Shown here: positions 37,856 through 41,265 of the stretch, in pieces
How positions within the stretch are numbered: position 1 is the first letter of the stretch
Layout: each line of letters starts with the position of its first letter
Assembly: GCA_029717555.1 (NCBI GenBank)
Contig: JAMDHS010000129.1
Location: 1-41,265 of the forward strand
Origin: Peribolospora baueri
Lineage: Eukaryota; Basidiomycota; Peribolosporomycetes; Peribolosporales; Peribolosporaceae
Direction: 5' to 3'
Length of the DNA stretch: 41,265 nucleotides
The notes under the pieces: generated by a model
Told to the model about the DNA's origin: nothing
The model's input: the letters and a program-made list of their open reading frames with translations, nothing else
Databases searched by the model: none
Made by a program: the position numbers and the translations under genes

Positions 37856-39965
37856 TTAGTCACCACCCCTTCTTTTGTCCTTAGCATCTATCCTCCTGAG
37901 CGCATCCGTCGCCATCCTCTGTCCGGCCTGCAGACCGATCGCGTGGGAGAACTCAAAAGCTCGACGGAAGTATGAGCGCGCTAAGGAAAGGTCGTTGGCC
38001 ATCTGAATTAGGAAGCACGAGAGGGGAGATGCCAATGGCGAGACGGGTGGAGAGAAGAAGTTCGTATCAGCCAACCGAGCCAGATTAGAACATCTAGACG
38101 ACGACATCCACACGTCAGTTACCCTGTTGCGCAACGTACCTCCCCGAGAACGCCCAAGTTGAACAACAACGTCGCCCTCGTCCTTTGACACATCTCGGCT
38201 TCACTCTCGTCCAATTTCTCCGTTTTCTCGTTCGACGCGATCGAAGACGCCCCGCCACCCAATGCCGCCAGAGCCCGCCCCTCGTCCTGGGTGGTGAGAC
38301 CTGCGTCTCTCCGAGCAAAGTCAACGATTTCCAGGCCTTTTTGAGCCCAGGCCATGGCCTGGTCGATAGTTGAGGACTTGGGATCAGCAACAAGGACTTG
38401 GGCGAGATTGTTCATAATAATGCCGGCTGCCGGGAGCGGAGGAGAGATGGGGTACGTGGGACCATCGACGAAGCCCAGTGCGACGGCGACGGTTAGCTCG
38501 GGTCGTCTCTTTCAAGTAAAAATTCGCCCTCAGAACTTGCCGCTCTCACCTTGACAGCGGTCGGTGACAGATGGTCTAAATGGGCGAGGTTTTTCTGGCG
38601 TCGAAGGCGGCATCAGAACAGAGAGAGCTTGCAGGTAGAGCGGTACGGCGTATCTGTCCAAAGGAAAGTTCAATACGTGAGCAATAGGCCATTTCAAGCG
38701 AATTAAATCAACCCCATGTCGCAGAGACTCACTCCGCGTTGCCCTCCCGTGCATAAAACTGGCCCAAGCTCTCCAGCGCCGGGCCAACATCTTGCTTGCT
38801 AACCCAGGGAGGTAACTCAAGCTCTCCGATTGTCATCCTCTCACTCTCCTTCAACAGCGCGTCTTCATCGTCTGTTTTCCCACCAGCCATGACTCGTTCT
38901 GCCTCCGCCTTCATCCTTCCGCTCAATGTGAGCTTCAATAGCTCCTCTAAGCTCCAGATGAGGTAGCCTTCCTCCTCCGCCGAGCCCGACTTTACGTCCG
39001 GGCTCTGAGCGAGGTCGCCCAGTTTCTGAGCAATGGAGGCAGCGCGCAGTCTCTCTCTGGGCTTGAGCACCTTCTGCCTCTCAACGCTCAGCGGGGCAGG
39101 GCGTTGTCCAGAGGTCATTCCGCCGGTATCGGTGAGCGAGACGTAATCTTCATTTGGACCGCGAATCTCGTCGAAGGTGGCGCTCAGCACGTCGTATGCC
39201 TTTTGGTCTTGACCTGTGCCTTCATAAAGGGAGGCGAGAGCTATTGCAATTCCCGTCGTCTTGAGCAGACGGTCTGCACCAAGACGCTCATCGGGAAGGG
39301 AGCGTGACGTTTCTAGGGCCCTGTGGGATCGAGACAGGTAGATCACGAAGCGTCGTCAGACTCTGAACAATGGCGTGAGTACAGCCGAGACAAAATGTGG
39401 GCACCAACTTAAGAAAATGTGCCTCCGCTCTGATAGGGTCTCCTCGGTGCTGCGCTTTTAACGCCGTCCTCAAGTCGCCACGAACCTCCGCAGGCCACTT
39501 GGAGAAGGACGTGTAGAATTCGTACCTGTTCGTGTAATTCGAACAGCAGGCCGTGAGAACCATGAAATGTGATGATGTCCACAAAATGAGCGCTCACAGG
39601 CCGTAGCTAGTCAATGTCAAACCGAACAAAGTAAGGCTACAAGAGTGAAGGTTCAAAGACGCGCCCCTCGATTAGCCGAACTCATCGCAGATATCAGGAG
39701 AGAGTACCATCAATAGGTATACAACATACGCCGTAAAGGCCACGCCAACCCTGAGCCGATTATGTCCCGGTGGTGGTGGGGGAGGTCTGAAGCTTGAGCT
39801 GGCAGTCGAAGTGAGCCTGCCGGCAGTGACCGGAAAAGATAATGGCAGAGCGGACGACGACAGCTTCGAGGGAGAGCCGTTGCCGAAGCGAGGCTTCATT
39901 GTCGTACCCCGCATAAGCCGCATGAGCGGAGGCGCTCTCAAAAGAGGAGCTGTCGAAGCAGACAT
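37856..39965 (-). CDS. mitochondrial TPR protein, Mgr3-like
   Basis: Six exons on the minus strand: 39965-39730, 39525-39409, 39320-38733, 38653-38550, 38426-38140 and 38002-37856, giving 492 residues. The N-terminal 60 residues are basic and Ser-rich, fitting mitochondrial import. The segment FYTSFSKWPAEVRGDLRTAL with HRGDPIRAEAHFLKALETS resembles fungal proteins related to Mgr3, an adaptor of the i-AAA protease. TPR-like helices follow: IAIALASLYEGTGQDQKAYD, LESLGQFYAREGNAEYAVPL, NNLAQVLVA, LLFNLGVLGE and LARSYFRRAFEFSHAIGL. The join of exons 1 and 2 is the weak point. The donor GTATGT after 39730 keeps the frame but shortens the hydrophobic stretch VGVAFTAYVVYLLMVL, which could be the inner-membrane anchor. 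A different donor with an undetected small exon is possible. The exon 2 donor (GTTGGT) is also non-standard. Confidence 0.6.
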
Positions 39966-40741
39966 CGCTAGTGTTGGGGCTCCGACGAGTTGGTGTGCGA
40001 GTGTCAGGCGGCCTGGCCTGGCTTGCCGACGGACTGAGGTTGGACTCGTTGAAGATCAACACTTGTTCCCCGCCGCAGTCCGATCGATCAGACGGCAGTC
40101 CCGAGAGCTCTGGTCGCTGATGAGAACCAGCTGATGGAGTTAACGTCGGAGAGCGGGAGAGTTACTCTATCTATGGCGCAGATGTACCATTCTCTATCGT
40201 TGCAGCCTCTGCATGCGAAAGTGTAGCGGTACAGGCGGTGTGAAGAGCAGGAAGCCTGTCTGTTCACCTCGGGGTTAGGTTTGCTGGTTTTCCTCTACTC
40301 CATCCCCGACACATCTACCCCTTGGTATGCTTATCGGCCGATCTGTATTTATGTCTATGCTCTTAATTTCAGATTGTAAGAAAGAAACGAAGTGAGGAAG
40401 ACGGTCATAGGGGGCCGTCGGCGAGACGGCGGCGGCGTGCGCCTGGGCCGAGGTGGGCCGAAGACCCGAGAGAGCATGTCCTCCAGCGTTTCTTCCAGGC
40501 GTGAAAGTCAAGGGAAAGGGAGGAGAGCGGCGGCTGAGTGGAGTAGGGAAGGAGAGCCGCATTGCCGAAGGAGTTTGCGAATAAAGTCGGAGTGGTCCTC
40601 GTCAATCGCGGCAAGGACCTGGACAACGTCAGCTTGGCCCGGATGATTGCGTCCTGCGCAATGTGAGGCAAAGACGAGTCGTGAGGAGGGAACGGGGGAG
40701 GCACACGCTCGCGCTTCTGTTGACCGCCTTCCTTCGAAGCC
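39966..40741. other. intergenic region between TPR gene and merB
   Basis: This 776-nt stretch separates the divergent TPR gene and merB. Its left part resembles other fungal promoters here; from about 40400 it becomes GC- and purine-rich on the plus strand. No attachment site, insertion-sequence end or direct repeat that would mark a recent insertion of merB was seen. Confidence 0.5.
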
Positions 40742-41265
40742 ATGTCCGAGGCCGTCACTACCCCCCTTCCCCGCACCCCGCCCTGCGGCGCCAATCCGCA
40801 CGCCTCGGCCACCGTTTCCGGCCTCCACCGGCCCCTGCTGCGCCTCCTCGCCAATGGCGAACCGGTCACCGTCGACGAGCTCGCCGGTGCCAGCGGTCGC
40901 CCGGTCACCGACGTGGCCCGCACGGTGGAACGCTGGCACGACGCTGAACGGGACGACGCCGGGCGCATCGTCGGACTCGGCATAACCCTCAGGCCCACGG
41001 CGCACCGGTTCACCGTCGACGGGCGTGACCTCTACACCTGGTGCGCCTTGGACACGTTGATGTTCCCCGCCATCATCGATCGGACCGCCATGGTCGAATA
41101 GCGCTGTCGCGCTACCGGGGCCGTCGTCAGGCTCACCGTCCACCCAACCCACGTCGGCGCCGTAGAACCGCCGACCGTCGTCTTCCCCGAGTCCTGGACC
41201 TCTCTGCGGTCCGCTTTCTGCGACCGAGTCCACTTCTTTGCATCTGCCGACGCCGCAGCGTCATG
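40742..41265 (+). pseudogene. merB: alkylmercury lyase (merB) with an in-frame stop, cut by the window end
   Basis: MerB cleaves the carbon-mercury bond of organomercurials, releasing Hg2+ for MerA. The frame runs 119 codons, meets TAG at 41099-41101 and continues in the same frame to the window edge. The N-domain reads LHRPLLRLLANGEPVTVDEL and GRIVGLGITLRPTAHRFTVD. The catalytic motif DLYTWCALDTLMFP holds Cys101 and Asp104, equal to Cys96 and Asp99 of E. coli R831b MerB. After the stop come RCRATGAVVRLTV, with the structural Cys 21 residues after the first (as Cys117), and SAFCDRVHFFAS, with the second catalytic Cys (Cys159). The family usually has Ser where the TAG lies (VESRC-like), so a TCG to TAG change would explain it. 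No introns are seen and codons are GC-rich. A real nonsense mutation, a sequencing error and recoding are all possible; the 3' end is outside the window. Confidence 0.88.

What the first reader, a model, noticed from the sequence alone, without database searches (positions are those of the whole stretch)
40742..41265. Bacterial-type merB at the edge of a fungal gene block
The translation matches MerB across both halves, including both catalytic cysteines, the Asp and the structural Cys. Organomercurial lyases are typical of bacterial mer operons. From memory, an HGT-derived methylmercury demethylase and a mercury ion reductase were described in the fungus Metarhizium robertsii, so fungal capture has precedent, but a basidiomycete-like setting would be a further case. 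The gene directly follows, on continuous sequence, a run of intron-bearing fungal genes, so simple contamination would have to occur inside the assembly.
Basis: partly seen in the sequence, partly recalled or inferred. Interest (0 to 1): 0.85.

Follow-up and report, generated by a model that had tools for sequence, protein, structure and literature searches.

The report
Broken bacterial mercury gene in fungus
At the end of a fungal contig lies a bacterial-type gene for breaking down organic mercury; two closely matching copies were found in the genome and both are broken, so it looks like a detoxification gene acquired from bacteria, then lost and duplicated as a relic.

Summary
The MerB similarity is real: both halves match MerB families and align to the solved MerB 1s6l. 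The window is all of contig C32 of a 22.1-Mb, 178-contig genome. A second copy, on C144, shares 41 bp of 5' flank, the TAG and the missing stretch; it has also lost 243 bp (winged helix, first catalytic Cys) but keeps the C-terminus. No third copy, no MerA over its cut-off and no bacterial DnaA were reported. Flanks are fungal: a duplicated gene fragment (C32); a divergent heavy-metal P-type ATPase and a truncated RSE1 copy (C144). Best reading: a horizontally acquired merB, already broken before a recent DNA-level duplication. Donor unresolved (best match 67% over 92 residues). Contamination is unlikely. A precedent exists in Metarhizium (review passage, PMC13161390).

The parts
40742..41098 (+). 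merB pseudogene, 5' part: ATG, winged helix, first catalytic Cys (41042-41044) and Asp (41051-41053)
   Evidence: Pfam PF12324 and PF03243, NCBIfam MerB, 1s6l alignment
41099..41101 (+). in-frame TAG, shared with the C144 copy
41102..41265 (+). merB pseudogene, 3' part up to the contig end: structural Cys (41105-41107), second catalytic Cys (41219-41221); C-terminus missing
   Evidence: PF03243; 1s6l alignment of the C144 counterpart; alignment
41176..41177 (+). point at which four residues nearly invariant in bacterial MerB are missing (also missing in C144)
40806..41048 (+). 243-bp interval absent from the C144 copy (edges ambiguous by a 5-bp microhomology, 40801-40805 = 41044-41048)
40701..40741 (+). 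5' flank shared with the C144 copy (no mismatch over 40701-40805); left border of the duplicated block
40381..40701 (-). copy (86% identity) of the 3' end of a long open frame on C153, meeting the merB block at 40701
40373..40488 (.). piece similar (82%) to C12
40285..40373 (.). piece similar (88%) to C146
41139..41265 (.). last 127 bases, identical to C144; the only substitution in the shared 222 bp is at 41138, so the contig ends exactly 127 bases after it, as a k=127 de Bruijn assembly would do at a repeat
   Evidence: assembler inferred

Best explanation
A bacterial organomercurial lyase gene of the type common in Actinomycetota entered the genome of this fungus. At one site (C144) it lies head-to-head with a heavy-metal P-type ATPase gene, about 600 bp between likely start codons, a plausible metal-detoxification pair. 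The gene then stopped being a working MerB: it acquired a premature TAG and lost a conserved four-residue stretch. After that, a block starting 41 bp before its ATG was copied at DNA level to a second site, the end of C32, next to a duplicated fragment of another gene. The C144 copy later lost 243 bp between 5-bp microhomologies. Shown: homology, both shared lesions, two copies, junctions with fungal DNA, the deletion. Inferred: transfer direction, earlier function, order of events, and that the copying belongs to a patchwork of duplicated fragments, perhaps at chromosome ends. The original enzyme would have cleaved the C-Hg bond of organomercurials to give Hg2+ (family knowledge); the present copies most likely make no enzyme.
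For: MerB matches in both halves. Two MerB places reported in 22.1 Mb, each with one TAG. Same TAG and same missing stretch in both. One substitution in the shared 222 bp at the 3' side and none in 105 bp at the 5' side. Different flanks. At C144, open frames on the opposite strand hold one HMA domain over the Pfam cut-off, one just under it, an E1-E2 ATPase domain and a hydrolase domain. Downstream is a 95% copy of an internal part of RSE1, whose longer gene on C147 has both RSE1 propeller domains and CPSF_A. No bacterial DnaA. No MerA over cut-off.
Against: No reads, long reads or second strain were available. The donor is unresolved: the fungal row is a long branch (0.82) in a weak fork (44/84). 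GC3 of the C32 frame (0.83) is above six of six uncurated fungal frames (0.61-0.79) and near the bacterial median (0.87), whereas the C144 C-terminal piece (0.76) lies inside the fungal range, so neither adaptation to the host nor its absence is shown. A neutral simulation gave 2.8 stops on average at 58% identity with at most one stop in 21% of 200 runs, so long selection in the fungus cannot be claimed. The fungal copy departs at 7 of 46 conserved columns; the two worst bacteria depart at 9 of 49 and 7 of 46. The genome search is exon by exon and scores only the best candidates, so a split MerA could stay under its whole-protein cut-off.
Confidence: 0.76

Rival explanations
1. The TAG is bypassed (readthrough, editing or reassignment) and C32 still makes a MerB.
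For: The frame stays open after the TAG to the C-terminus in the C144 copy, and the key residues are kept in C32. Of two conserved genes whose ends I read, neither ends in TAG (TGA and TAA).
Against: TAG ends 4 of 21 stop-to-stop frames of 250 residues or more in the window, though these are mechanical frames, not proven genes. No unusual RNA structure around and after the TAG (z 0.42). Four further conserved residues are missing. The C144 copy with the same TAG lacks a catalytic Cys.
Confidence: 0.05
2. Bacterial contamination joined to fungal contigs by the assembler.
For: merB lies at a contig end in the window; GC3 of the C32 frame is near the bacterial median.
Against: Two contigs carry it with the same 5' border, different flanks and one differing lesion. 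No bacterial DnaA. No close match among the 80 best of 274 bacterial relatives or in plasmids. A stop and a missing conserved stretch are not expected of a live contaminant.
Confidence: 0.04
3. The truncated 119-residue product (winged helix plus the start of the catalytic domain) has a new role, for example binding metal or nucleic acid.
For: An ATG-to-TAG frame covering most of the winged-helix model (positions 13-74 of 74) exists in C32.
Against: That domain was reported only in C32, not in C144; the product lacks the second catalytic Cys.
Confidence: 0.05
4. The two copies are a rearranged allele of one locus in a non-haploid strain, not a fixed duplication.
For: Near identity of the shared block.
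Against: The left flanks differ; ploidy could not be examined.
Confidence: 0.1

Closest known systems
Bacterial MerB (organomercurial lyase, PF12324 + PF03243) as in Amycolatopsis antarctica (L042) and Mycolicibacterium chubuense pMYCCH.01 (L034)
   Same: Domain order and key residues; first half 67% and 65% identical over 92 residues. The second half is less alike: best 58% over 55 residues, Sciscionella marina L074
   Different: Both bacterial loci have merA directly before merB; here no MerA over cut-off, a stop codon, a missing conserved stretch, fungal flanks
Metarhizium robertsii methylmercury demethylase Mmd
   Same: Bacterial gene for organomercury breakdown in a fungus, acquired by horizontal transfer according to a review passage (PMC13161390)
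   Different: Mmd works together with a reductase Mir according to that passage; the present copies are broken. The original paper (PMC9704736) is not held and no Mmd sequence was at hand, so relatedness was not tested
Subtelomeric merA copies in the red alga Cyanidium (PMC9812998, passages)
   Same: Horizontally acquired mercury gene multiplied in a eukaryote by duplication
   Different: merA, five copies, chromosome-level evidence; here merB, two broken copies, and a chromosome-end position only suggested

Membership tests
MerB (organomercurial lyase) | Sequence match to winged-helix and catalytic domains | tested here: met
   C32, both pieces; the winged helix was not found in the C144 copy
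MerB (organomercurial lyase) | Cys96, Asp99, Cys159 (1s6l numbering; catalytic roles recalled) | tested here: met
   C32 keeps all three; the C144 copy has lost the first
MerB (organomercurial lyase) | Uninterrupted reading frame | tested here: not met
   TAG at 41099-41101 and in C144
MerB (organomercurial lyase) | C-Hg bond cleavage | not testable with these tools
   needs an experiment
mer operon | merA in the neighbourhood | tested here: inconclusive
   no MerA over cut-off in the genome; seven matches below it at three loci: C145 and C153 read by me as glutathione reductase and dihydrolipoamide dehydrogenase, C97 a general pyridine-nucleotide oxidoreductase. At C144 the neighbours are a P-type ATPase and an RSE1 fragment; the right side of C32 is not assembled
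Horizontally acquired fungal Mmd | Same clade as Metarhizium Mmd | not tested
   no fungal MerB sequence other than this genome's was at hand

The most novel reading that the evidence does not exclude
A further fungal lineage captured merB, perhaps independently of Metarhizium, and ran it with a metal-transporting P-type ATPase in a divergent pair instead of with MerA; the gene was lost only recently in this strain, so sister strains may still carry working copies, possibly near chromosome ends.
Probability: 0.3. Interest if true: 0.65.

Novelty: new member of a known kind. Interest (0 to 1): 0.42.

Why it matters
It would add a case of bacterial organomercury detoxification entering fungi, and show such a gene being lost and copied as a relic. 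It also warns that a MerB-like hit in a fungal genome need not mean a methylmercury degrader. If relatives keep an intact gene, they would offer a natural gain-and-loss series to test whether merB pays for itself in fungi.

Tried and rejected
Intron over the TAG: rejected, because the residues before and after it are conserved MerB and the profile skips one position only. Hidden MerA: see membership test. RNA structure for readthrough: none beyond chance, 127 of 200 shuffles fold as well. Tandem repeats in 38000-41265: none. Overlap of the left contig end with another contig: none, so k=127 rests on the right end alone. Chromosome end: C117 begins with telomere repeats and the last 45 bp of C144 match C117:776-820, but 59 matches to the first 1200 bases of C117 lie on many contigs, so this is only suggestive. 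Host identity: the 18S search gave no answer three times.

Papers: eight searches of the held library. In the listings I saw no title or abstract reporting merB in a basidiomycete; one search listed 20 of 50 papers and one search listed 15 of 22, so the rest went unseen. Passages read: PMC5766836 ('merb' there is merbromin in the passages shown), PMC7902016 (an abbreviation), PMC12590662 (an author name), PMC11792481 (Rhodotorula mucilaginosa said to lack MerB), PMC12195606 (merA and merB homologues in fungi mentioned, citing the Metarhizium work), PMC8780889 (fewer genes with alkylmercury lyase activity than in Metarhizium anisopliae ARSEF 549, which implies that the latter has some), PMC9812998, PMC13161390. 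The library lacks most subscription papers.

Rows dropped: of 274 relatives the tool kept 80; with 9 plasmid loci these gave 89 proteins, 54 distinct, all 54 used.

Full report
OBSERVATION. The window is the complete contig C32 (41,265 bp) of a 22.1-Mb, 178-contig genome. On the + strand an ATG at 40742 opens a frame whose 119 codons match the MerB winged helix (E 8.5e-18) and the start of the MerB catalytic domain (E 1.7e-12). After a TAG at 41099-41101 the same frame goes on with the next part of MerB (E 3.2e-07) up to the contig end. NCBIfam MerB models match both pieces (3.7e-41 and 3.4e-13), each below the whole-protein cut-off because each is a fragment. Alignment with PDB 1s6l places the equivalents of Cys96, Asp99, Cys117 and Cys159 (roles recalled).

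LESIONS. Of 46 columns conserved at 90% or more in 54 distinct bacterial MerBs and lying within the C32 span, C32 keeps 39. The seven departures are two substitutions, the stop, and four consecutive missing residues at 41176/41177. By number this is not exceptional (the worst bacteria depart at 9 of 49 and 7 of 46); by kind it is. The residue at the stop position is the same in 54 of 54 bacteria.

SECOND COPY. MerB was reported at two places in the genome, C32 and C144, each with one TAG. The C144 copy shares 41 bp of 5' flank, the ATG, the TAG and the missing stretch. It lacks 243 bp, flanked by a 5-bp microhomology, which removes the winged helix and the first catalytic Cys, and it runs on to a C-terminus with an extension after the usual Cys-Cys end. 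The shared 105 bp on the 5' side have no mismatch; the shared 222 bp on the 3' side have one, at 41138. C32 ends exactly 127 bases after that base. A de Bruijn assembler with k=127 would stop there if both copies are in the reads and identical from then on; the assembler is inferred, and the left end of C32 shows no such overlap.

SURROUNDINGS. Left of the block on C32, 40381-40701 is an 86% copy of the 3' end of a long open frame on C153; shorter similar pieces lie on C12 and C146. Further left, 5 of 9 long open frames scanned have a Pfam domain over its cut-off: WD40, Uds1, IF3, aminotransferase and a hydrolase with weaker cation-ATPase matches. On C144 the opposite-strand neighbour has one heavy-metal-associated domain over the cut-off and one under it, an E1-E2 ATPase domain and a hydrolase domain; its likely ATG is about 600 bp from that of merB (my reading). 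Downstream is a 928-bp, 95% copy of an internal part of RSE1, what I read as intron sequence included; the longer gene on C147 has both RSE1 propellers and CPSF_A. These look like DNA-level duplicates, so merB was probably moved the same way. A chromosome-end position is suggested by the 45-bp match of the end of C144 to C117, 0.8 kb from telomere repeats, and weakened by repeats in that part of C117.

ORIGIN. A scan of one genome per bacterial or archaeal species found 274 relatives of the first half among 277 stretches; of the 80 kept, the best-scoring is 67% identical over 92 residues (Amycolatopsis antarctica), and a proteobacterial MAG reaches 67% over 82. The scan used two peptide patterns, so relatives without them were missed. 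On plasmids the first half reaches 65% over 92 residues in Mycolicibacterium and the second half 48%. In a 55-row tree the fungal sequence is a long branch in a weakly supported fork with actinobacterial, bradyrhizobial and enterobacterial rows: bacterial in type, donor unresolved. Of nine plasmid mer loci read, six have merA directly before merB, two have a MerR-family gene between them and one shows no merA in the stretch; Amycolatopsis antarctica has merA directly before merB. The fungal genome gave no MerA over the cut-off, but genes split by introns are matched exon by exon. GC3 is 0.83 for the C32 frame and 0.76 for the C144 C-terminal piece, against 0.61-0.79 in six uncurated fungal frames and a median of 0.87 in 89 bacterial merBs.

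CONTAMINATION. Unlikely: two contigs with different flanks share one 5' border and two lesions and differ in a third, DnaA is absent (while 13 of 14 control genomes ring), and nothing nearly identical turned up in the bacterial sets searched.

FUNCTION. The ancestral enzyme would have cleaved organomercurials (family knowledge). The present copies most likely make at best a truncated product. Signs of a bypass were not found: TAG ends 4 of 21 long mechanical frames in the window, though the two conserved genes whose ends I read use TGA and TAA, and no structure beyond chance surrounds the TAG.

KNOWN OR NEW. A review passage reports a horizontally acquired methylmercury demethylase in Metarhizium (PMC13161390). 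The host here was not identified: it has fungal domains and a degenerate 5.8S/ITS-like fragment that from memory resembles basidiomycetes. If so this is a further fungal lineage, but a relic. I file it as a merB-derived pseudogene, a new member of a known kind.

Noticed in passing
L123:4729-5200 (G000:C106, 65728 onward): A degenerate-looking 5.8S/ITS2/28S-like fragment lies alone amid other DNA; Rfam matches only the 5.8S part, and it is the only 5.8S match reported for the assembly (39 of 644 candidates scored).
   Followed up: partly
L007:6668-7581 (C144): Truncated RSE1 copy, 95% identical to the longer gene on C147, with small gaps.
   Followed up: yes
L030:1-1200 (C117): Contig begins with CCCTAA telomere repeats; pieces of its first 1200 bases recur on many contigs, some of them within 1.2 kb of a contig start.
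   Followed up: partly
window 40381-40701 and L008:4030-4872 (C153): Long open frame with repeated short motifs on C153; the window holds a piece of its 3' end and C12 a shorter similar piece.
   Followed up: no
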